Source: a virus. From it: a DNA stretch of 63,323 bases. A model generated the notes under the pieces. It was not told the origin of the DNA and did not search any database. It saw nothing but the letters and a program-made list of their open reading frames with translations. The position numbers and the translations under genes were made by a program. How positions within the stretch are numbered: the first letter of the stretch is position 1; each line of letters starts with the position of its first letter. The stretch lies in IMG/VR virus record IMGVR_UViG_3300023284_000199, positions 1 through 63,323 of that record, one strand, 5' to 3'. Shown here one piece after another: positions 4,557 through 54,349 of the stretch.

Positions 4557-5402
4557 CTAATTTAGATAATTGGTGAAAACTTTACGCATATTATCTAGCG
4601 ATGATTCAATGGTTTTGAATCCCTTGTATCGAATCATAGGGACATGAATCACAGATTCATTATCCGGTTCGCTAGGGGTATCGCGGCAATCGCCGTAACC
4701 CGGATACCATCGAGTCGCGTGCTTTGCGTCCTGCTCCAATAATCTGAAATGAAGCATGCGCAAAACCGAGGGATGCGCCAGAATATAAGAGAACCGATCT
4801 AGTTCAAGAAACATACCAGGACTCTTGATAGGAAACTCTTGGCGGATATGTGTACCATCGTTTCCAGCCGTATCGATGTATCCGACTAACTCTATTTGGT
4901 ATCCCGCAGTTTCTAGGGCATCGATCATAGAAACTAGAGCGATGCCACGGTTAACGATGGTGTTATGTTTCACCATTCCCGCAACAGTTAGATTCGCCTC
5001 GATTTTCAAGATAGGCAAAACTGGAGAATTTACTTCTGAAAATGCGAGCATGGATTCTGGATTGCCGATTAGAAAATCAGGGACAGAAGGGACGAATCCA
5101 ACAATCGCATTTTCTAAGACTCGGATAGGTTTCGAATCTGTCAAATGCTTGGCTATATCTAAGCCTTGTCTAATCTTTGCCGTTCCTTCTGGCCAACCAT
5201 AGCGCGCAAGCTTCATAGCATCAGCAAACGAACGAATCCCTTCACCGAACCATTCCGGCGGATGACCTGAAATATTCAGAGTCGACATATGCTCATTAGC
5301 CGATTTTGACGGTTGCTCGCATTGATCAAGAAAAGCATCGAAACTTGGCCACGTTTCCATTTTAGGTTTACCGTTCACTTTCCTTTTCCTACGTCTTGCC
5401 AT
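4557..5402 (-). CDS. DUF7192-like protein paired with the AAA ATPase
   Basis: A 281-residue protein with a basic N terminus (MARRRKRKVNGK). The segment around RGIALVSMIDALETAGYQIE resembles the core strand-helix of von Willebrand A-like folds, and phage proteins of this type sit beside MoxR-type ATPases as here. MoxR ATPases commonly act with VWA partners, so a chaperone or remodelling pair is likely. The family name is from memory; the substrate is unknown. Its start overlaps the ATPase stop by one base. Confidence 0.6.
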   Translation of the reverse strand: MARRRKRKVNGKPKMETWPSFDAFLDQCEQPSKSANEHMSTLNISGHPPEWFGEGIRSFADAMKLARYGWPEGTAKIRQGLDIAKHLTDSKPIRVLENAIVGFVPSVPDFLIGNPESMLAFSEVNSPVLPILKIEANLTVAGMVKHNTIVNRGIALVSMIDALETAGYQIELVGYIDTAGNDGTHIRQEFPIKSPGMFLELDRFSYILAHPSVLRMLHFRLLEQDAKHATRWYPGYGDCRDTPSEPDNESVIHVPMIRYKGFKTIESSLDNMRKVFTNYLN

Positions 5403-6736
5403 TACATCGCCGCCTTGATTTTGCTTATCGTGGCCGAGTCAAGGTTGCGCCAGATTATCAGGTTCTCGACTTCCTTGAATCCCATGCCTTGAACATCGAT
5501 CAGACGCGAACCTTTTTCAGATGCCCTAGGACTCACAAGATGCTTGAGTCCAATGCTGGCGACTGCCTTGCGAGCCGACTGGACATAATCCACCCATTGC
5601 ATGTTCGTTGAAATCGCACGCTCTAACGACTCGTCAATATCGATAGGCAATTGAATAAAGCGGTCTAGAGTCGTTGCGTCCAATTGAACACGACCTACAT
5701 ATTCACGATCTTGGCCGAGTCCCCACGTGTTCGCGCAAGCTATGCACTTGAAGTCTGGGTGTTGCTTCGCCATGCCATTTGCAAAAGCACAATAACCGTT
5801 CGCGAGTGCCGCATTGACAGCTAACAAAGCATTGGGCGAACAGCCGTCCATTTCATCGAACACGAATCCGCCGCCTTGCGTGAAAGCACGGTAGAAATCG
5901 GTTTCAATATAGTTCCCGTTCGCGTCCATGTATCCAAAAATAGTAAACTTGGTATCAAAAGCACCTTGTAGATAAAACGGAATCCCTAACGCTTCGAAAG
6001 CTTGGACGGCCATATGTGACTTGCCCGTTCCAGAAGTGCCGACTAGATAAACGTGACTCTCCTGTAGAAGCTTAATCAATCGCGGCAATTCATGGTGAGT
6101 GAATCCTTCGACTGCCCGAGTCTCGCCATCACTTTCGACATGGACAACAGTAGGGGTCGGCGCGGAATGTTCCAGAATAAGGCGAACCGCTTGTGATTCC
6201 GTAAGTCCATGTTCTCCGATTAATTCGACAACTCGCGACTCGTCTAGATCAGCCGTTGTGTTTGCCGCTTCTGCTATTGCCCGGATTGCATCTTCCAAAA
6301 CGCTACCGTTGCCACCTGTAGGCTTCACTGGCGCGGATTCCGCAAGTTCTGATGCGTCCCTATCATCTAATACGGTAGCCAGCGTATCACCTTCCCTGAT
6401 GCTTTGATCAAATTCAGTACTTGTGACAACTTCATCGTTAATTGTTGCGATTGCAGAGTCATTACCGAAAGCAGACTCGCCAGTTTGCGCGGATTCTGTC
6501 CATTGGTAATTCTCAATAGTGAATCCCTGATCTACAAAATTCTTCCTAACTTTGACAAAATATCGACGATGATTCCACATTTTCGAAAGAGTCGTATGTC
6601 TCATTTTCTCGACTCGGTCGTCCGGGAATCCCAATTCTTTAGCCCATAACCTCGCTATATCAATGTTGTCATAATCGATGACCGTCTGACCATGTTCGCC
6701 TAGTAGGTCTTGATAATCTCTCGATAAAGTAAGCAT
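5402..6736 (-). CDS. MoxR/CobS-type AAA+ ATPase
   Basis: A 444-residue protein. The first 200 residues are a phage-specific region. The AAA+ core follows, with Walker A GTSGTGKS at 233-240 and Walker B FVFDE at 291-295, then an Asn-containing sensor stretch (CANTWG) and an arginine region (LDRFIQLP). The family couples ATP hydrolysis to remodelling of protein complexes. It is the first gene of a leftward operon with the DUF7192-like partner. The promoter is unclear; TTGACT...TCTATG at 6792-6820 is only weak. Confidence 0.85.
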   Translation of the reverse strand: MLTLSRDYQDLLGEHGQTVIDYDNIDIARLWAKELGFPDDRVEKMRHTTLSKMWNHRRYFVKVRKNFVDQGFTIENYQWTESAQTGESAFGNDSAIATINDEVVTSTEFDQSIREGDTLATVLDDRDASELAESAPVKPTGGNGSVLEDAIRAIAEAANTTADLDESRVVELIGEHGLTESQAVRLILEHSAPTPTVVHVESDGETRAVEGFTHHELPRLIKLLQESHVYLVGTSGTGKSHMAVQAFEALGIPFYLQGAFDTKFTIFGYMDANGNYIETDFYRAFTQGGGFVFDEMDGCSPNALLAVNAALANGYCAFANGMAKQHPDFKCIACANTWGLGQDREYVGRVQLDATTLDRFIQLPIDIDESLERAISTNMQWVDYVQSARKAVASIGLKHLVSPRASEKGSRLIDVQGMGFKEVENLIIWRNLDSATISKIKAAM

Positions 6737-48492: not shown

Positions 48493-48521
48493 TTGACATA
48501 CTAGGCACCAATCATTATATT
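48493..48521 (+). promoter_or_regulatory. Promoter of the tRNA array
   Basis: TTGACA (48493-48498), 17 bases, TATATT (48516-48521), nine bases before the first tRNA. Confidence 0.75.
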
Positions 48522-48529
48522 ACAAATAT

Positions 48530-48605
48530 GGGAGTATAGCCCAACGGCAGAGGCGGCAAGCTTAGACCTTGTACAGTGTAGGTTCGAATCCTATTACTCC
48601 TACCA
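48530..48605 (+). tRNA. tRNA-Leu(UAG), class I shape
   Basis: Acceptor GGGAGTA pairs with TACTCCT; anticodon loop CTTAGAC gives UAG. The variable loop is only five bases, unlike normal bacterial tRNA-Leu, so the amino-acid identity is less sure. CCA is encoded. Confidence 0.7.
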
Positions 48606-48610
48606 ATTAT

Positions 48611-48686
48611 GGGGATATAGCCCAACGGCAGAGGCATCGGGTTTAAATTCCAATCAGTGTAGGTTCGACTCCTACTATCCCTACCA
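48611..48686 (+). tRNA. tRNA-Leu(UAA), class I shape
   Basis: Acceptor GGGGATA/TATCCCT; loop TTTAAAT gives UAA. The anticodon stem has a C-A mismatch and the variable loop is short. It shares D and T arms with the tRNA before it. Confidence 0.65.
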
Positions 48687-48701
48687 ATTAGAGTGTGTGA
48701 T

Positions 48702-48950
48702 ATGGCATACTGTAGACAAATTGAAAGCGAGTGTGACGTTTACTGTTATGAAATGCGTGTAGACGGTAAATCAAAATGGATCACTCATTGGGTTGGATTT
48801 ACTGAAACTTTTTCAGACCCTAGTTTATATGAGTTTCGCCATCGTTTAAAAACAATCCGTTCATATGGATATCTAGTACCTGACAGAGTATTTGAACGGA
48901 TAGAAAGAGAAATGGCGGGACAAAAAAGGGAAAGTGTGGTGACAGAATGA
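48702..48950 (+). CDS. Hypothetical protein between tRNA genes
   Basis: An 82-residue protein starting MAYCRQIESECDVYCYEMRV. Four cysteines or aromatic pairs lie in the first 25 residues. Overlaps the next ORF by four bases. Function unknown. Confidence 0.5.
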   Translation: MAYCRQIESECDVYCYEMRVDGKSKWITHWVGFTETFSDPSLYEFRHRLKTIRSYGYLVPDRVFERIEREMAGQKRESVVTE

Positions 48951-49138
48951 CTGCTATATGTCATGATTGTGCAATTGCGAAAGGAGCAAGAGAAATTAAA
49001 GGTCATGTATGTACTATGAGTATGGGCTTATGTACCTATTGCAAAGAAGAAAAAGTTATATCAGGTACAAATGATTATCAGTGGCCTTTATCTAATGGAA
49101 AAGGATTTCACCCTATATTTAAATGGGGTTGGGATTAA
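48947..49138 (+). CDS. Small zinc-finger-like protein
   Basis: A 63-residue protein with CHDC near the start and, after a His-Val-Cys, CTYC, a four-cysteine arrangement that could hold zinc. Coupled to the ORF before it. Function unknown. Confidence 0.5.
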   Translation: MTAICHDCAIAKGAREIKGHVCTMSMGLCTYCKEEKVISGTNDYQWPLSNGKGFHPIFKWGWD

Positions 49139-49143
49139 CTAAG

Positions 49144-49216
49144 AAGCGGTGGCCGATTGGCTAGGTGACAGATTGCAAATCTGTTTAAGTGGGTTCGATT
49201 CCCACCTGCTTTTCCA
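49144..49216 (+). tRNA. tRNA-Cys(GCA)
   Basis: Stem ACAGA/TCTGT around TTGCAAA; acceptor GAAGCGG/CTGCTTT with G-U pairs; T73 and CCA encoded. Confidence 0.85.
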
Positions 49217-49217
49217 A

Positions 49218-49293
49218 GGATCGGTAGCTCAGAGGCCAGAGCAGAGGACTTTTAATCCTCGTGCCGTGAGTTCAAATCTCACTCGATCCTCCA
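49218..49293 (+). tRNA. tRNA-Lys(UUU)
   Basis: Acceptor GGATCGG/TCGATCC; stem GAGGA/TCCTC around CTTTTAA; CCA encoded. Confidence 0.9.
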
Positions 49294-49298
49294 ATTAT

Positions 49299-49373
49299 CG
49301 ACGGTGTGGTGTAATGGCAGCACAAAAGACTGTGACTCTTTTAGTGTGGGTTCGAATCCCATCATCGCGACCA
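49299..49373 (+). tRNA. tRNA-His(GUG) with bulged acceptor
   Basis: Stem AAAGA/TCTTT around CTGTGAC. The acceptor CGaCGGTG pairs with CATCGCG only if one A is bulged on the 5' side. CCA encoded. Confidence 0.8.
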
Positions 49374-49410
49374 AAAATACTATGCAGTGAATAACAGGAA
49401 AGGAATGAAT

Positions 49411-49692
49411 ATGGAAGCGCATGAAATAGATAAATATTTTCCTGACTGTGAAAGTCTAGAAAGTGTTGTAAACGAAATGTACACTAGGCTGTTGAAATAT
49501 ATATATATATGTCATGTGGTAAACTGTGAAGGAATTGATTTTCTAGAAATGCATATACATGATAGCGATCCTTTATTTACAGATTTAGAAAAAGAATTCA
49601 TGGAAATGGCTGGAAAAAATGCAGATTTATTAGCTAATAGATCATGGAAAAGAAAGAAGGCAAAGTTAAAAGTTAATCTTGGTGTAGCTTAA
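49411..49692 (+). CDS. Hypothetical protein ending inside tRNA-Pro
   Basis: A 93-residue acidic helical protein beginning MEAHEIDKYFPDCESLESVV, with AAAGGA seven bases before the ATG.  Its TAA lies in the D arm of the following tRNA, an overlap of 15 bases. Function unknown. Confidence 0.5.
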   Translation: MEAHEIDKYFPDCESLESVVNEMYTRLLKYIYICHVVNCEGIDFLEMHIHDSDPLFTDLEKEFMEMAGKNADLLANRSWKRKKAKLKVNLGVA

Positions 49693-49751
49693 CGGCAAAG
49701 TGATGGACTTGGAATCCATAGACGAAGGTTCGACTCCTTCCACCTTGACCA
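49678..49751 (+). tRNA. tRNA-Pro(UGG), imperfect acceptor
   Basis: Stem ATGGA/TCCAT around CTTGGAA. Acceptor CTTGGTG against CACCTTG has two T-T mismatches at positions 2 and 3. CCA encoded. Confidence 0.75.
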
Positions 49752-49771
49752 ATTTTTTTTTAATAAAGTGG

Positions 49772-49800
49772 TTGACAACGAAAGGCAGGATCACTATATT
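49772..49800 (+). promoter_or_regulatory. Second promoter in the tRNA array
   Basis: TTGACA (49772-49777), 17 bases, TATATT (49795-49800), after a run of T residues at 49753-49760. Confidence 0.75.
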
Positions 49801-49805
49801 AAAGT

Positions 49806-49887
49806 TTCGGATGGGCGGTTGACCGTATCGCACTGGTCGGATAGTAAGGCCAGAATAAAATGGGTTTGATTCCCATATCCGTGACCA
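49806..49887 (+). tRNA. tRNA-like gene, isotype undetermined
   Basis: A T arm ATGGG-TTTGATT-CCCAT and near-complete acceptor TTCGGAT/ATCCGTG with A and CCA are clear. The anticodon stem TGGTC/GGCCA encloses nine bases (GGATAGTAA), not seven, so the anticodon cannot be fixed. Confidence 0.5.
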
Positions 49888-49896
49888 AGTTTTATG

Positions 49897-49970
49897 GGAC
49901 GATTATGCATTTGCTAATGCAGCGCCATATTGGGGCGTGAAAGTCGGTTGAATTCCGGCATTGTCCGACA
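49897..49970 (+). tRNA. tRNA-like gene, apparent anticodon AUU, no CCA
   Basis: Acceptor GGACGAT/ATTGTCC, D arm TGCA/TGCA, anticodon stem GCGCC/GGCGT around ATATTGG, T arm GTCGG/CCGGC. The end is G-ACA, not CCA. An A at position 34 would be very unusual for Asn, so it may be a decayed gene. Confidence 0.45.
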
Positions 49971-49975
49971 ATTTT

Positions 49976-50049
49976 GTGGGTGTAGTTCAAAGGCAGAGCA
50001 AGAGGTTTCCACCCTCTAAACGCGGGTTCGAATCCTGTCACCCATACCA
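49976..50049 (+). tRNA. tRNA-Gly(UCC)
   Basis: Acceptor GTGGGTG/CACCCAT; stem AGAGG/CCTCT around TTTCCAC; CCA encoded. Confidence 0.9.
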
Positions 50050-50050
50050 A

Positions 50051-50156
50051 TACGTGTAGTTGTTAGAATCTATGGGCCGTCACATTAGATGATGGATTAG
50101 GCCGAAGTGGTTAGCGATTCACTATAGATTTGGGCAAAGCAGTACCACATACACGT
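50051..50156 (+). ncRNA. Structured RNA candidate, not a tRNA
   Basis: ACGTGTA (50052) pairs with TACACGT (50150). Inside, AATCTAT (50067) pairs with ATAGATT (50124) and encloses GGCC/GGCC and AGTG/CACT stems. No T-loop motif is present. It lies between tRNA-Gly and tRNA-Asp. Confidence 0.4.
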
Positions 50157-50158
50157 TT

Positions 50159-50235
50159 GCTGTAGGGGCCATAGCGGCAGAGGCACTGGATTGTCGATCC
50201 AGAGATAGCGGGTTCAAATCCTGTCTACAGCGCCA
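50159..50235 (+). tRNA. tRNA-Asp(GUC)
   Basis: Perfect acceptor GCTGTAG/CTACAGC; stem CTGGA/TCCAG around TTGTCGA; G73 and CCA encoded. Confidence 0.92.
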
Positions 50236-50241
50236 ATTTTG

Positions 50242-50286
50242 AAGCCTGTTATCATGGTACTTAGTGCGGTTAACAGGTTTCTTTTT
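50242..50286 (+). terminator. Terminator inside the tRNA array
   Basis: CCTGTTA (50245-50251) pairs with TAACAGG (50271-50277), followed by TTTCTTTTT. Confidence 0.65.
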
Positions 50287-50289
50287 AGT

Positions 50290-50396
50290 GGAGGGTTTCT
50301 AGGCTGGTAGGAAGTCTATATAGGAAGACGGTTTTCGGAGGTGTCCTATGTCCTTGATAATCGTTTAGACTTTGGGTTCAATCCCCTAACTTTTCC
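50290..50396 (+). tRNA. Oversized tRNA-like element
   Basis: Acceptor GGAGGGT pairs fully with ACTTTTC (many G-U pairs) and a T loop GGGTTCAATCCCC is present, but the total of 107 bases is too long. A hairpin CGGTTTTC...GATAATCG sits where the variable arm should be. The 3' end is C-GCA. It may be a pseudo-tRNA or carry an insertion. Confidence 0.35.
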
Positions 50397-50410
50397 GCAT
50401 AAACTTTTAT

Positions 50411-50486
50411 TTCTAGGTAGCTAATTCGGCAAAGCGACTGGCTGTTAACCAGGGATATGTAGGTTCAAGTCCTACCCTAGAAGCCA
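50411..50486 (+). tRNA. tRNA-Asn(GUU)
   Basis: Perfect acceptor TTCTAGG/CCTAGAA; stem ACTGG/CCAGG around CTGTTAA; CCA encoded. Confidence 0.9.
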
Positions 50487-50492
50487 ATTATG

Positions 50493-50542
50493 GGGCGTAA
50501 ACTGGTAATTCTAGATTGTAGGTTCGATTCCTACTGCGCTCC
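50493..50542 (+). tRNA. Truncated tRNA-like element of 50 bases
   Basis: Acceptor GGGCGTA/TGCGCTC and T arm GTAGG/CCTAC are intact, but only one short arm (CTGG/CTAG) lies between. The anticodon arm is missing and the end is C-CT. Probably a deletion product. Confidence 0.45.
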
Positions 50543-50551
50543 CTACGTTAC

Positions 50552-50642
50552 GGATAGACAAGCCAATGGGCGGTGGTCGTGGTTTTGAAAACCATTAGGA
50601 GTAATCAGTCTCGTGGGGGTTCGACTCCCTCTCTATCCGCCA
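50552..50642 (+). tRNA. tRNA-Ser(UGA)
   Basis: Acceptor GGATAGA/TCTATCC; stem GTGGT/ACCAT around TTTGAAA; long variable arm of the Ser class; CCA encoded. Confidence 0.9.
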
Positions 50643-50659
50643 ATTCGAAAGGAACTGAA

Positions 50660-50755
50660 ATGGAATATCTATTTGGTATGTTATGCGTATTGGTTCTTTT
50701 AGGTTTAGGACCACCCATTTTACACAAACTCAATGTGTGGATTTGGAATGATTAA
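50660..50755 (+). CDS. 31-residue membrane peptide
   Basis: MEYLFGMLCVLVLLGLGPPI then a short basic-aromatic tail. One hydrophobic helix. AAAGGAAC lies before the ATG. Its stop is the last codon before tRNA-Ile. Function unknown. Confidence 0.45.
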   Translation: MEYLFGMLCVLVLLGLGPPILHKLNVWIWND

Positions 50756-50829
50756 TCTGGTGTAGCTCAATGGCAGAGCAAGTGGCTGATGACCGCTGTA
50801 CGAGGGTTCGATTCCTTCTACCAGTACCA
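50756..50829 (+). tRNA. tRNA-Ile(GAU)
   Basis: Stem AGTGG/CCGCT around CTGATGA; acceptor TCTGGTG/TACCAGT has a T-T mismatch at the first pair; CCA encoded. Confidence 0.85.
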
Positions 50830-50833
50830 AAAT

Positions 50834-50904
50834 GCCTGGGCGTGGTCGGGCGGAAGTCTCATAAGCTTCCTAGCTGAGTGGTTCAATTCCCTCTCTTGGC
50901 ACCA
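50834..50904 (+). tRNA. tRNA-Met or Ile2 (CAU), shortened D arm
   Basis: Stem GAAGT/GCTTC around CTCATAA; T loop TTCAATT; CCA encoded. The D arm is unusually short and the T stem needs a bulged T. Met or lysidine-modified Ile2 cannot be told apart. Confidence 0.7.
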
Positions 50905-50908
50905 ATTC

Positions 50909-50998
50909 GGATAGGCAAACCAATAGGCGGTGGTCGCTGTTTGCTAGACAGTTAGGAGTGTAAGTCTCGTGGGGGTTCGACTCCCTCTCTATCCGCCA
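50909..50998 (+). tRNA. tRNA-Ser(GCU)
   Basis: Acceptor GGATAGG/TCTATCC; stem GCTGT/ACAGT around TTGCTAG; long variable arm; T arm identical to tRNA-Ser(UGA), so the two are paralogues. Confidence 0.9.
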
Positions 50999-51066
50999 AG
51001 TTTTAATGTCCCATATGTGGGATAATGTTGCATTAAAGCATCATAAGGAGGTTAAATGTTGCTTTT

Positions 51067-51258
51067 ATGGTACATATAAGTAATGCAATGATTGACCGAA
51101 TCTATGAAATGTGGCATAGTATGTTACGATATTGTCACAGTGAAGAATTTGACCAGAAAATGTTTGGAACAATGGTCAGTAATTTTAACCATACCTACAA
51201 AAGATGCAGTGTAGGGGAACAAGGAGAATACCATAGGAGAATATCTTTGGGACTGTAG
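51067..51258 (+). CDS. Hypothetical protein ending in tRNA-Ala
   Basis: A 63-residue protein with several His and Met (MVHISNAMIDRIYEMWHSML). The stop TAG is bases 8-10 of the following tRNA. A strong AAGGAGG site upstream fits better a seven-codon ORF at 51056-51079 that overlaps its start, so translation may be leader-coupled. Confidence 0.4.
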   Translation: MVHISNAMIDRIYEMWHSMLRYCHSEEFDQKMFGTMVSNFNHTYKRCSVGEQGEYHRRISLGL

Positions 51259-51326
51259 CTCAATTTGGGAGAGCGTCTGCCTTGCAAGCAGAGGGTTGTG
51301 AGTTCGAGTCTCACCAGTATCCACCA
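51249..51326 (+). tRNA. tRNA-Ala(UGC) with bulged acceptor
   Basis: Stem TCTGC/GCAGA around CTTGCAA. Acceptor GGGACTG pairs with CAGTaTCC only with one A bulged on the 3' side. CCA encoded. Confidence 0.82.
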
Positions 51327-51331
51327 ATTAA

Positions 51332-51406
51332 CGACTCGTAGCTTAATGGGAAAGCCTGCCGCTCATAACGGTAAAGATGGGGGTTCAAGTCCCTTCGGGT
51401 CAACCA
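51332..51406 (+). tRNA. tRNA-fMet-like (CAU)
   Basis: Acceptor CGACTCG/CGGGTCA leaves C1 opposite A72, the hallmark of bacterial initiator tRNA, with A73. Stem TGCCG/CGGTA around CTCATAA gives three strong pairs next to the loop. CCA encoded. Confidence 0.78.
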
Positions 51407-51413
51407 AACATAT

Positions 51414-51488
51414 TCCGAGGTAGCTCAATGGTAGAGCGGCATGTTGAAGCCTTGCGCGTCGGTGGTTCGATTCCATCTCTCGGGACCA
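51414..51488 (+). tRNA. tRNA-Phe(GAA)
   Basis: Acceptor TCCGAGG/TCTCGGG; loop TTGAAGC gives GAA; stem GCATG/CTTGC has one T-T mismatch; CCA encoded. Confidence 0.8.
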
Positions 51489-51495
51489 ATTTAAT

Positions 51496-51572
51496 GCCTC
51501 ACGTAACTCAAATGGCAGAGTAGCTGTTTTGTAATCAGCAAGTTGTGGGTTCAAGTCCTACCGGGGGCACCA
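51496..51572 (+). tRNA. tRNA-Thr(UGU) with bulged acceptor
   Basis: Loop TTTGTAA gives UGU; T arm GTGGG-like with TTCAAGT. Acceptor GCCTCaCG pairs with CGGGGGC if one A is bulged. The anticodon stem has one T-T mismatch. CCA encoded. Confidence 0.78.
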
Positions 51573-51590
51573 ATAGAAAGGGATTAAATC

Positions 51591-51767
51591 GTGATTGAAG
51601 AATCATTAACAAGAAATTGTCCCTTTTGTGGCAGTAGTAATATAGGGAAAAGTTCAGTATTTAACGAATTCCGTTTTGTATGTCGTGTTTGTGACACACA
51701 CGGTCCCTTAATAGTAGGAGAACAAACGTGGGGAAAAGCAATTGATGCATGGAATAGTGGGGATTAG
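51591..51767 (+). CDS. Lar-like zinc-ribbon protein
   Basis: A 58-residue protein with a GTG start and an AAAGG site. CPFCGSSNIG, then CRVCDTHGPL and a final AIDAWNSGD follow the pattern of the Lar restriction-alleviation family (CPFCGS, CxxC, GP, AxxxWN). Lar of the Rac prophage eases host type I restriction; activity here is inferred. Its stop TAG is bases 8-10 of the following tRNA. Confidence 0.7.
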   Translation: MIEESLTRNCPFCGSSNIGKSSVFNEFRFVCRVCDTHGPLIVGEQTWGKAIDAWNSGD

Positions 51768-51832
51768 CTCAGCGGTAGAGCCTCGGTGTTACATACCGGG
51801 TGTCATAGGTTCGAATCCTATATCTCCAACCA
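51758..51832 (+). tRNA. tRNA-Val(UAC)
   Basis: Acceptor TGGGGAT/ATCTCCA; stem TCGGT/ACCGG around GTTACAT; CCA encoded. Confidence 0.88.
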
Positions 51833-51835
51833 TTA

Positions 51836-51916
51836 CCGTAAGCTGAGTATTGGCGAACTCAGGAGGCTGTAACCCTCTGCAAAGCTGTGGTGGTTCGACT
51901 CCATCCTTACGGACCA
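51836..51916 (+). tRNA. tRNA-Tyr(GUA)
   Basis: Perfect acceptor CCGTAAG/CTTACGG; stem GGAGG/CCTCT around CTGTAAC; extended variable arm as expected for bacterial Tyr; CCA encoded. Confidence 0.9.
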
Positions 51917-51965
51917 AGTTACTTGAAAGCATGTTAAAGGAGTTAACTCGCTCTTAAAAGCATAT

Positions 51966-52043
51966 GTCACCGTCTTCTAATCGGTCTAGGAACCTTGATT
52001 TTCAATCAGGACAATGTGGGTTCGAATCCCATCGGTGATACCA
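51966..52043 (+). tRNA. tRNA-Glu(UUC)
   Basis: Acceptor GTCACCG/CGGTGAT; stem CTTGA/TCAGG around TTTTCAA; CCA encoded. Confidence 0.9.
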
Positions 52044-52049
52044 ATACAT

Positions 52050-52126
52050 ACCTCTGTGGCTCAAATGGACAGAGCGCGGGCCTACGAAGCCTGAGACTGT
52101 GGGTTCGATTCCTACCAGGGGTGCCA
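52050..52126 (+). tRNA. tRNA-Arg(ACG)
   Basis: Acceptor ACCTCTG/CAGGGGT; stem CGGGC/GCCTG around CTACGAA; G73 and CCA encoded. A34 would need host TadA editing to inosine, as normal in bacteria. Confidence 0.9.
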
Positions 52127-52131
52127 ATTCA

Positions 52132-52156
52132 ATACTAACTCTGCTATAGTTAGTAT
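52132..52156. repeat. Nine-bp perfect hairpin between tRNA genes
   Basis: ATACTAACT and AGTTAGTAT flank seven bases. No T run follows, so it is more likely a processing or folding element than a terminator. Confidence 0.5.
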
Positions 52157-52166
52157 GCAATCTAAT

Positions 52167-52243
52167 GTGGGAGTGGTATAATCTGGCTATTACGTCAGTC
52201 TCCAAAACTGAAAATCTGGGTTCAAATCCTAGCTCCTGTGCCA
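52167..52243 (+). tRNA. tRNA-Trp(CCA anticodon)
   Basis: Stem TCAGT/ACTGA around CTCCAAA; acceptor GTGGGAG/CTCCTGT relies on three wobble pairs; G73 and CCA encoded. Last gene of the array, one base from the opposing gene. Confidence 0.85.
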
Positions 52244-52244
52244 A

Positions 52245-52424
52245 TTATCTTAAACCCGGAAGTTTCCCATCGTCTTCCCACTCTACATCTACGCTATTGT
52301 GATGTATTTTAATCACTCTAAACACTCTTCCTTTGTTCGGACCTTCATCAGTTTGTCTATATCTTTGACCAACTTGAAAGCTATCGGTCCATAATTTACC
52401 ATCACTTAATGTCATAAAGTTCAT
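52245..52424 (-). CDS. Hypothetical 59-residue protein
   Basis: Begins MNFMTLSDGKLWTDSFQVGQ and has a small beta-barrel-like pattern (RVFRVIKIHHNSVDVEWE). Its ATG overlaps the reductase stop (TAATG), so it is translated with it. It ends one base from tRNA-Trp on the other strand. Function unknown. Confidence 0.55.
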   Translation of the reverse strand: MNFMTLSDGKLWTDSFQVGQRYRQTDEGPNKGRVFRVIKIHHNSVDVEWEDDGKLPGLR

Positions 52425-54349
52425 TATCCATCTCCCACTAATTCACATGCGTTGGCTGTACAACTTAATTCTCTTAAACTTGTAGTGTTATCCTCACACT
52501 CATATTCAGCAAGAAAACTCCAATTTACATCTGTTGGCATTTCGTTCTGCATTTGTTCATACTTTGTTCTATCTATTTCTTGATATGGAGCCTGTTTATA
52601 AACATGATTTGTATGTGGTAAAAAAGCAACACCACTCATATTATCAAAATTATCCCACACCCAAGCACCCACACTTGGCCATTCATTTTCTCTCACAGTT
52701 ATAGTTACTGAAGGTTTATGCTCACACCAATGATCTTGAACTAATTTCCAATGTTCAAGTTCTTGTATAGCTGTGCGATCATCTCTACACACTGCACCTT
52801 TGGGAGCCTTGATAGGGAAACTAAATATCGTAGTTTCATCAGGTTTAGTTACATCAGGTTGCCACGGAAAACCACTATCTTTCATAAATTGAGTAACCGG
52901 GTCTTTGTTATCTTGTCTCACACCACGAAGATAGTATTCAGCAAACCATGCGTGCATACCAGAACCGGATAGGACTAGCTGACTTGCTGTACCACTAGGC
53001 TTAACACATGTAGCAGCAGTAGACACATTAATCTTCAAACGATCAGCCCACTCTTTATTAGTTTCCACAACTACATTTCGTAGTTCACAAAAAATATCTG
53101 CTGTGAATCCTTTATCACTAGAATCACTGGTTAAAGAATTGTCCATGATGCCAGTTAGTGACACTCCTAATAGTCTTTCCTCTTCACAATTATTTTGCCA
53201 TTTCTTCGGAAGGTATCTAAAATTAGTTAGTGTAGATTGCATAGTTCCAAGTATAGTAGCAATCCTAACCTTCTCTTTCAACGTATAAATAGAATCACTT
53301 GGACGGATAACTGCTTCAGATAAATTACAAAGCTGCCTTGGTCTAAGAATAATTTCAGAGCATGGATTAGTACCAAAATCATATTCAGTATCTCTACGAC
53401 CAGAAGTACCGGCTTGCATACGAGCAGCGTTTCTATTAAAGATACCTCGCTCACCTGACTGAGACTCATAGATCGAACCCCACTCTTTCATAAAATGACC
53501 AACTTCAGGAGTCTCCGTAAACGCGATAGAGTTATTAGCTAATGCCCGTTGTGGGTTTAACTCCCACCATTGACCGGTCTTAGCATCACGCATCCTTTGG
53601 TCGGATAGATTTGAAAGACTAATCAATGCGGCTCTACGAACACCACCAACCACCACGATATCCCCTAACTTGCACATAATATCGTGACACTCTAACGAAT
53701 TAAGTTTTCTACCCACGGCATGTTCGAAGATCATTATGACGAATCGAAATAGCTCTACAAGAGGCTCCGGTCCTGATGATCTACCGCCCATAGTTTTTAA
53801 CTTAGCTCCTGCTGGTCTTAATCCTGATACATCCCATTCAGGAATTACACCCGCGTACAAGAGAGCTATCAACTGTCTAAGTGCTTCAGCCCAACCTATC
53901 TTTGAATCCCTAACTTTGATAACCGTGTGAGACTTGACTAATTGATCCGGTATGGACGGCATCTGACCTATATATTGACGCTCCACAGAGAAGCCTACCC
54001 CTGTTCCACACATGAGTATATACATAGCCTCGTCAAAGGCTCTAGGAGTGTCTATAGGGAGATATGAACAGTTGTAACCCGCTACGTTGTCTCTAGCTAA
54101 AGCCTTACCAGCGGTCATTAGACACCGCATAGAGGGCATCACATCTAGATTGAGTATGGCACTTTCCAATTCATCATATTCAGGCTCAGTTAGGCAATAC
54201 TCTGATGAACCCTGGTCTAAATGGTTGTAGAAGAATTGCATGTATCTTCGAACCGTTTCATCCCAACTCTCCCTTCTGTTTTCTTCTTCTATCCATCGGG
54301 CATATCTACTTTTGTGGATAAATTCTTGGTATTGAGTTGGTAGAATCAT
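52424..54349 (-). CDS. nrdJ: Class II (B12-dependent) ribonucleotide reductase
   Basis: A 641-residue monomeric-type ribonucleoside-triphosphate reductase. Key motifs are C94 in GYNCSYLPID, NPCSEIIL at 328-335 with the following CNLSE at 341-345 (the Cys-Glu-Cys active-site set), and CTANAC near the C terminus, probably the redox pair. It makes deoxynucleotides with adenosylcobalamin as radical source and works with or without oxygen. At 641 residues it is shorter than the roughly 740-residue Lactobacillus enzyme. It has a promoter of its own. Confidence 0.88.
   Translation of the reverse strand: MILPTQYQEFIHKSRYARWIEEENRRESWDETVRRYMQFFYNHLDQGSSEYCLTEPEYDELESAILNLDVMPSMRCLMTAGKALARDNVAGYNCSYLPIDTPRAFDEAMYILMCGTGVGFSVERQYIGQMPSIPDQLVKSHTVIKVRDSKIGWAEALRQLIALLYAGVIPEWDVSGLRPAGAKLKTMGGRSSGPEPLVELFRFVIMIFEHAVGRKLNSLECHDIMCKLGDIVVVGGVRRAALISLSNLSDQRMRDAKTGQWWELNPQRALANNSIAFTETPEVGHFMKEWGSIYESQSGERGIFNRNAARMQAGTSGRRDTEYDFGTNPCSEIILRPRQLCNLSEAVIRPSDSIYTLKEKVRIATILGTMQSTLTNFRYLPKKWQNNCEEERLLGVSLTGIMDNSLTSDSSDKGFTADIFCELRNVVVETNKEWADRLKINVSTAATCVKPSGTASQLVLSGSGMHAWFAEYYLRGVRQDNKDPVTQFMKDSGFPWQPDVTKPDETTIFSFPIKAPKGAVCRDDRTAIQELEHWKLVQDHWCEHKPSVTITVRENEWPSVGAWVWDNFDNMSGVAFLPHTNHVYKQAPYQEIDRTKYEQMQNEMPTDVNWSFLAEYECEDNTTSLRELSCTANACELVGDG

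What the first reader, a model, noticed from the sequence alone, without database searches (positions are those of the whole stretch)
48530..52243. Near-complete tRNA set in 3.7 kb
About 23 credible tRNAs cover 19 amino acids plus initiation; only Gln was not found. This is exceptional for a phage of this size and suggests near independence from the host pool, for example under tRNA cleavage defence or a codon-usage mismatch.
Basis: seen in the sequence. Interest (0 to 1): 0.75.

Follow-up and report, generated by a model that had tools for sequence, protein, structure and literature searches.

The report
Near-complete phage tRNA gene array
This tailed phage carries 22 closely packed transfer-RNA genes, one for almost every codon box and 19 of the 20 amino acids; it is a good example of a phage gene cluster already known from other phages, probably a spare tRNA pool for when the host's own tRNAs run out.

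Summary
ARAGORN finds exactly 22 tRNA genes at 48530-52243, all on the + strand, with 21 anticodons for 19 amino acids and no Gln. Eighteen are strong by Rfam, Met 50826 is weak, and tRNA-like relics lie between them. Two TTGACA-N17-TATATT promoters sit directly upstream of the array and of a later unit in it.

The set is non-redundant: one tRNA per codon box. It is not autonomous. Gln (CAA/CAG), Arg (AGA/AGG, CGG) and probably Ile AUA are unread: 8.2% of codons, and every one of 54 genes needs at least one. AGA, the commonest Arg codon, has no tRNA, which argues against simple codon compensation.

"This size" is misleading. Synteny with the closest relative (93 kb) shows that about 24 kb of genome is missing from the window. 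That relative carries a larger array at the same site covering all 20 amino acids, plus RNA ligase and polynucleotide kinase genes. Published precedents match (Shigella phage Sf14: 26 tRNAs, 19 amino acids, 87.6 kb).

Best reading: a replacement/supplement tRNA pool for infections in which host tRNAs are cleaved or decay. New member of a known kind.

The parts
48493..48521 (+). sigma-70-like promoter TTGACA-N17-TATATT upstream of the array
   Evidence: 3 matches in the window, 0.04 expected by chance; the -10 hexamer ends 8 nt before the first tRNA.
48530..48605 (+). tRNA-Leu(UAG), short variable arm
   Evidence: ARAGORN; Rfam 55.8 bits.
48611..48686 (+). tRNA-Leu(UAA), short variable arm
   Evidence: 49.4 bits; 82% identical to Leu(UAA) of Acinetobacter phage Herod.
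48693..49138 (+). two small ORFs (85 and 63 aa, 48693-48950 and 48947-49138) between tRNAs, no family match
49143..49216 (+). tRNA-Cys(GCA)
   Evidence: 54.4 bits.
49218..49293 (+). tRNA-Lys(UUU)
   Evidence: 65.5 bits.
49300..49373 (+). tRNA-His(GUG), no G-1 and A73 (alphaproteobacterial type)
   Evidence: trait defined in PMC3937112.
49387..49692 (+). small ORF (101 aa), no family match
49678..49751 (+). tRNA-Pro(UGG)
   Evidence: 60.8 bits.
49772..49800 (+). second TTGACA-N17-TATATT promoter, inside the array
49806..49887 (+). tRNA-like cloverleaf with 9-nt anticodon loop and T-loop TTTGATT, encoded CCA; starts where transcription from the second promoter would start
   Evidence: no Rfam match; fold not better than shuffles (z -0.64).
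49897..49971 (+). tRNA-like cloverleaf, T-loop TTGAATT, no CCA
   Evidence: z -2.3.
49976..50049 (+). tRNA-Gly(UCC)
   Evidence: 61.1 bits.
50052..50158 (+). structured spacer of unknown role
   Evidence: Fold z -2.0.
50159..50235 (+). tRNA-Asp(GUC)
   Evidence: 48.9 bits.
50241..50286 (+). possible terminator: 11-bp stem GAAGCCTGTTA/TAACAGGTTTC with 19-nt loop, then T-run
   Evidence: Sequence, fold; not among the consensus hits (loop too long).
50411..50486 (+). tRNA-Asn(GUU)
   Evidence: 60 bits.
50492..50544 (+). truncated tRNA relic: acceptor and T-arm intact, no anticodon arm, no CCA
   Evidence: Rfam 21.9 bits (below cut-off); fold z -2.4.
50552..50642 (+). tRNA-Ser(UGA)
   Evidence: 30.9 bits.
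50756..50829 (+). tRNA-Ile(GAU), G37 in place of A37
   Evidence: 54 bits.
50826..50904 (+). weak tRNA-Met(CAU) (elongator Met or Ile2 not resolvable); true 5' end probably 50834
   Evidence: 21.4 bits, below cut-off.
50909..50998 (+). tRNA-Ser(GCU), 85% identical to Ser(UGA) nearby
   Evidence: not reported by Rfam.
51249..51326 (+). tRNA-Ala(UGC), G3:U70 kept, one bulged base in the acceptor stem
   Evidence: and sequence.
51332..51406 (+). tRNA-Met(CAU), C1:A72 mismatch, probable initiator
   Evidence: 54.7 bits.
51414..51488 (+). tRNA-Phe(GAA), G37
51497..51572 (+). tRNA-Thr(UGU)
   Evidence: 47.8 bits.
51591..51767 (+). small zinc-ribbon ORF (58 aa), weakly Lar-like (restriction alleviation)
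   Evidence: PHROG 599 E 7e-6; Pfam Lar below cut-off.
51758..51832 (+). tRNA-Val(UAC)
   Evidence: 58.6 bits.
51836..51916 (+). tRNA-Tyr(GUA)
51966..52043 (+). tRNA-Glu(UUC)
   Evidence: 53.1 bits.
52050..52126 (+). tRNA-Arg(ACG)
   Evidence: 60.2 bits.
52167..52243 (+). tRNA-Trp(CCA)
   Evidence: 52.4 bits.

Best explanation
A functional phage tRNA array. It is transcribed rightwards from at least two strong sigma-70-type promoters by host RNA polymerase, cut into single tRNAs by host enzymes, and charged by host synthetases. It supplies one tRNA per codon box and so acts as a broad replacement/supplement pool that keeps phage translation going when host tRNAs fall, through anticodon-nuclease defence or decay of the host machinery. 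It lowers the dependence on host tRNAs but does not remove it: Gln, Arg AGR and probably Ile AUA must still come from the host or from the unsequenced part of the genome. Shown: the genes, their non-redundancy, promoter-like sites, encoded CCA ends, the conserved site in the sister phage. Inferred: transcription, processing, charging and the benefit under tRNA depletion.
For: 22 tRNAs with 21 distinct anticodons, only CAU twice. ARAGORN of 22 with CCA, and Ala too ends in CCA if one acceptor base is bulged. Two near-consensus promoters, 0.04 expected in the window. Array at the same syntenic site in the closest relative G014, with 33 ARAGORN tRNAs plus Tyr, Lys(UUU) and Ser(UGA) by relaxed scan or reading: all 20 amino acids. 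Single-codon or rarely limiting amino acids (Trp, Met, His, Cys) are included, as a replacement pool predicts. G014 encodes a T4 Rnl1-like RNA ligase (E 2e-67) and, about 0.5 kb away, a polynucleotide kinase, in the segment missing from the window. Phage tRNAs are shown to rescue phages from tRNA-depleting defences, from a strong promoter (PMC11555353).
Against: 8.2% of codons and all 54 genes need tRNAs that the visible set lacks. No tRNA-repair, synthetase or modification gene was recognised in the window proteins scanned. RNA ligase is found in 4 of 11 tRNA-rich relatives and 0 of 38 tRNA-poor ones, but three of the four are above 150 kb, so genome size confounds this; six tRNA-rich relatives of 98-112 kb lack this ligase family. 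Some members look degenerate (Met 50826, acceptor bulges in His and Ala). No expression data.
Confidence: 0.6

Rival explanations
1. Codon compensation: the phage (40% GC, GC3 26%) has a codon bias unlike its host's and carries tRNAs for codons that are common in it and rare in the host.
For: Strong A/T-ending bias; U34 anticodons in seven of eight four-codon boxes suit A-ending codons; a tRNA-His trait suggests a host in an alphaproteobacterial clade that includes high-GC groups. XacN1 tRNAs favour phage-preferred codons (PMC5852040).
Against: AGA, the commonest Arg codon and typically rare in high-GC hosts, has no tRNA while CGN has one; CAA and AUA are likewise unserved; Trp, Met and Cys tRNAs gain nothing from compensation. 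A one-per-box set is predicted by replacement, not by compensation. The host is unknown, so the direct comparison could not be run.
Confidence: 0.22
2. Largely selfish or neutral accumulation: tRNA genes gained by recombination with other phages, duplicated and decaying, with only a few under selection.
For: Duplicated Ser pair (85%), short-arm Leu pair shared with unrelated phages, tRNA relics and degenerate members, small ORFs between tRNAs, a probable homing endonuclease in the sister array (read), reshuffled order between sisters.
Against: No duplicated anticodon except CAU; coverage of 19 amino acids is far beyond random draws; promoters; the site holds an array in both genomes despite strong protein divergence.
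Confidence: 0.13
3. The array mainly serves one or two tRNAs that counter a specific defence (as T5 tRNA-Tyr against retron Eco7); the rest ride along.
For: Established cases for tRNA-Tyr and tRNA-Lys (PMC11555353); both types are present here.
Against: Would not explain the one-per-box coverage or the complete sets in relatives.
Confidence: 0.05

Closest known systems
Shigella phage Sf14 and other Moogle-like phages (PMC12482277)
   Same: 26 tRNAs for 19 amino acids, two Met, clustered in 4.6 kb of an 87.6-kb genome; many isotype-inconsistent tRNAs.
   Different: Myovirus of enterobacteria; a different phage lineage; redundancy not compared in detail.
tRNA gene clusters / tRNA array units in phages (PMC6409571, PMC5966550)
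   Same: 15-37 tRNAs at 2-10 per kb, most with 16 of 20 isotypes and eight with all 20; array unit defined as at least 20 tRNAs at 2 per kb or more.
   Different: This phage lineage (relatives of PaMx11-like siphoviruses) was not seen among the examples I read; published clusters are in genomes of 72 kb and more, the window is a 63-kb fragment.
[quoted passage not shown] the original paper was not readable here)
   Same: Phages with unusually large tRNA isotype repertoires.
   Different: Actinobacterial hosts, no shown relationship.
Uncultivated sister G014 (IMGVR_UViG_3300037722_000380, 93 kb)
   Same: Syntenic genome, array at the same site, shared Phe G37 and Val loop features.
   Different: About 36 tRNAs, all 20 amino acids including Gln and all Arg boxes; canonical tRNA-His (G-1, C73); carries RNA ligase and polynucleotide kinase.
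Mesyanzhinovviridae-like siphoviruses (PaMx11, Lydia)
   Same: Terminase about 53% identical for PaMx11.
   Different: Genomes near 60 kb with no or few tRNAs (Lydia has none, PMC11946847; relatives have 0-2).

Membership tests
Phage tRNA gene cluster / tRNA array unit | At least 15 (cluster) or 20 (array unit) tRNA genes at 2 or more per kb | tested here: met
   22 tRNAs in 3714 bases, 5.9 per kb; definitions.
Phage tRNA gene cluster / tRNA array unit | Lies in a viral genome, not a host island | tested here: met
   Virus record with terminase, portal, tape measure, DNA polymerase on either side; same site in sister phage.
Complete, self-sufficient tRNA set | Reads all 61 sense codons / 20 amino acids | tested here: not met
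   No Gln, no Arg AGR or CGG reader, AUA unless one CAU is Ile2; 55 of 61 codons with family-box wobble. The genome is incomplete, so this holds for the visible part.
Codon-compensation tRNA set | Anticodons match codons that are common in the phage and rare in the host | tested here: inconclusive
   Phage side tested: AGA, CAA and AUA unserved. Host unknown.
Anticodon-nuclease-evading tRNAs (van den Berg et al., PMC10264068) | Anticodon-loop changes relative to host tRNAs that are nuclease targets | tested here: inconclusive
   Unusual loops in Ile (G37), Phe (G37), Asp (G37, A38), Val (T38); no host tRNAs to compare.
T4-type tRNA repair (Rnl1 and Pnkp) | RNA ligase and polynucleotide kinase genes | tested here: not met
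   Absent from the window but present in sister G014 in the segment that the window lacks.
Mesyanzhinovviridae | Family-level whole-genome relationship | not tested
   Only single-protein similarity seen; no genome-wide phylogeny made.

The most novel reading that the evidence does not exclude
This lineage and its relatives have converged on complete, non-redundant tRNA sets (all 20 amino acids in G014, G059, G060 and G067, genomes of 93-112 kb) that take over decoding while host tRNAs are destroyed, and the tRNA-like cloverleafs with abnormal anticodon loops inside the arrays act as decoys or inhibitors of tRNA-cutting enzymes.
Probability: 0.07. Interest if true: 0.7.

Novelty: new member of a known kind. 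Interest (0 to 1): 0.36.

Why it matters
Why phages carry many tRNAs has been open for more than 50 years. A pair of syntenic phages with arrays at one site, one missing only Gln and the other complete and carrying tRNA-repair genes, beside close relatives with no array (G020, G018), is a natural comparison for testing replacement against codon compensation. The one-per-box make-up and the lack of a tRNA for the commonest Arg codon are specific points against simple codon compensation.

Tried and rejected
A hidden tRNA-Gln: no forward candidate in ARAGORN, relaxed ARAGORN or Rfam; only the antisense of tRNA-Lys/His mimics one at low threshold. Stop-codon reassignment as the reason for missing Gln: all three stops are used normally and CAA/CAG occur 557 times. 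Gln-like backbone of the short-arm Leu tRNAs as a sign of miscoding: the same short-arm Leu tRNAs occur in many unrelated phages and none matched E. coli genomes, so it is a general phage feature. Tyr C7/R8, further RRCH traits in PMC3937112, are not met by the window's Tyr, so the host call rests mainly on tRNA-His. Host search in bacterial genomes with the CobS-like ATPase gave only distant MAG hits. Tail-protein, helicase and exonuclease queries found no further relatives or the missing genome part. RNR-based relatives had no arrays. Comparison with Alphaproteobacteria tRNAs was not possible: no such genome could be reached.
Full report
Observation. ARAGORN finds 22 tRNA genes, all on the + strand, from 48530 to 52243 and none elsewhere in the window. 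They carry 21 anticodons and cover 19 amino acids; only Gln is missing. Rfam's tRNA model supports 18 strongly (47.8-65.5 bits) and Ser-UGA at 30.9; Met 50826 falls below the cut-off (21.4), and Ser-GCU and Tyr were not reported although their stems are good. The density is 5.9 per kb.

Anatomy. The set is non-redundant: Phe, two Leu boxes, Ile, two CAU tRNAs, Val, two Ser boxes, Pro, Thr, Ala, Tyr, His, Asn, Lys, Asp, Glu, Cys, Trp, Arg-CGN and Gly, one each. Twenty-one of the 22 ARAGORN calls end in an encoded CCA; in the other, Ala, the CCA follows once one acceptor base is allowed to bulge, and Ala keeps the G3:U70 pair. Met 51332 has the C1:A72 mismatch of initiators but not the GGG:CCC stem. 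Two promoter-like sites TTGACA-N17-TATATT lie at 48493-48521 and 49772-49800, where 0.04 are expected in the whole window; the first tRNA starts 9 nt, and a tRNA-like cloverleaf 6 nt, after the -10 hexamer. A possible terminator follows tRNA-Asp. Between the tRNAs lie small ORFs and tRNA-like relics (49806-49887, 49897-49971, 50492-50544) that fold as cloverleafs or truncated cloverleafs but have abnormal loops. The sister array has one too (L187:8381-8452, z -4.3).

Codon coverage. With wobble reading of whole family boxes by U34, the visible set reads 55 of 61 codons; 8.2% of codon use is not covered (CAA 439, AUA 409, AGA 337, CAG 118, AGG 86, CGG 37), and none of 54 genes is free of such codons. 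AUA would be covered if one CAU tRNA is Ile2, but then still no gene is free. Late and early genes do not differ in this (8.3% and 8.0%). So the phrase "near independence" is too strong for what is visible.

The genome is incomplete. The window is an IMG/VR record classed as linear. Its nearest relatives by terminase (58-65% identity) include records of 78-93 kb. Gene by gene, window 11.6-62.7 kb is collinear with G014 14.4-59.6 kb, and the left end of the window matches G014 84-90.6 kb. About 24 kb is therefore missing, including homologues of the G014 helicase, primase and thymidylate synthase.

Relatives. G014 carries its array at the same site, the meeting point of rightward late genes and leftward early genes. 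ARAGORN finds 30 genes there (one without a clear anticodon) and three (Cys, Gly, Gly) upstream of terminase; a relaxed scan adds Tyr and Lys-UUU, and Ser-UGA can be read. Together all 20 amino acids are covered, including Gln and four Arg tRNAs. G020 has no tRNA at this site and G018 has none at all; more distant PaMx11-like records have 0-2. Records that share the DNA-transfer protein include six of 98-112 kb with 23-30 Rfam tRNAs; three of them cover all 20 amino acids by ARAGORN. tRNA content is thus gained and lost often. Same-isotype identities between window and G014 are modest (Ile 0.78, Ala 0.78, Glu 0.76) and the order differs, so the site is shared but the content has turned over.

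Host. The window's tRNA-His lacks G-1 and has A73, while the five comparators with a tRNA-His all have G-1 and C73. A73 without G-1 defines the Rhodobacteraceae-Rhizobiales-Caulobacterales-Hyphomonadaceae clade and most SAR11 (PMC3937112). Supporting hints are an RcGTA-type tail domain and closest Ala and Lys tRNAs in an Erythrobacter phage. The Tyr traits of that clade are not met, so this remains an inference.

Function. Three readings compete. A replacement/supplement pool explains the one-per-box design, the inclusion of Trp, Met, His and Cys, the strong promoters and the complete sets in relatives. The sister phage's Rnl1-like ligase and polynucleotide kinase, the T4 answer to anticodon nuclease, support tRNA cleavage as the pressure in this lineage. 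Across 49 records the ligase is found in 4 of 11 tRNA-rich and 0 of 38 tRNA-poor ones, but three of the four are above 150 kb and six tRNA-rich records of about 100 kb lack it, so this is weak. Codon compensation fits the A/T-rich bias but not the absence of an AGA reader. Neutral accumulation fits the relics and duplications but not the coverage.

Novelty. Phage tRNA clusters of 15-37 genes, with eight of 228 having all 20 isotypes, are published (PMC6409571), and Shigella phage Sf14 is a near twin in numbers (26 tRNAs, 19 amino acids, 4.6 kb, 87.6-kb genome). XacN1 covers all 20 in a jumbo genome. This is a new member of a known kind, in an uncultivated lineage of siphoviruses whose better-known relatives carry few or no tRNAs.

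Noticed in passing
48530-48686: Both Leu tRNAs have a short (type I) variable arm, unlike bacterial Leu tRNAs. The region matches 103 phage records of unrelated hosts, where one or both Leu tRNAs are often annotated, with no match in E. coli genomes.
   Followed up: partly
49806-49971 and L187:8381-8452: tRNA-like cloverleafs with abnormal anticodon or T-loops sit inside both sister arrays; one lies directly at the second promoter's expected start site.
   Followed up: partly
49300-49373: tRNA-His without G-1 and with A73, the trait of one alphaproteobacterial clade, while the five comparators with a tRNA-His have the ordinary G-1 and C73. Phage tRNA-His may serve as a host marker.
   Followed up: partly
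L198:10858-13407 (sister G014): RNA ligase (Rnl1-like) and polynucleotide kinase genes close together in the sister phage that has the complete tRNA set.
   Followed up: partly
L284, L285, L286 (G059, G060, G067): Uncultivated phages of 100-112 kb with 31-32 tRNAs of different anticodons covering all 20 amino acids.
   Followed up: partly
L187:7568-7930: Probable LAGLIDADG-type homing endonuclease gene between two Pro tRNAs in the sister array, read from the sequence only.
   Followed up: no
52424-54349 and 5402-6736: B12-type ribonucleotide reductase and a CobS-like AAA ATPase (porphyrin biosynthesis PHROG) in the same phage.
   Followed up: no
50756-50829, 51414-51488: Ile and Phe tRNAs have G37 where A37 is the rule; Phe G37 is shared with G014 and G067. 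Possible nuclease evasion or altered modification.
   Followed up: partly
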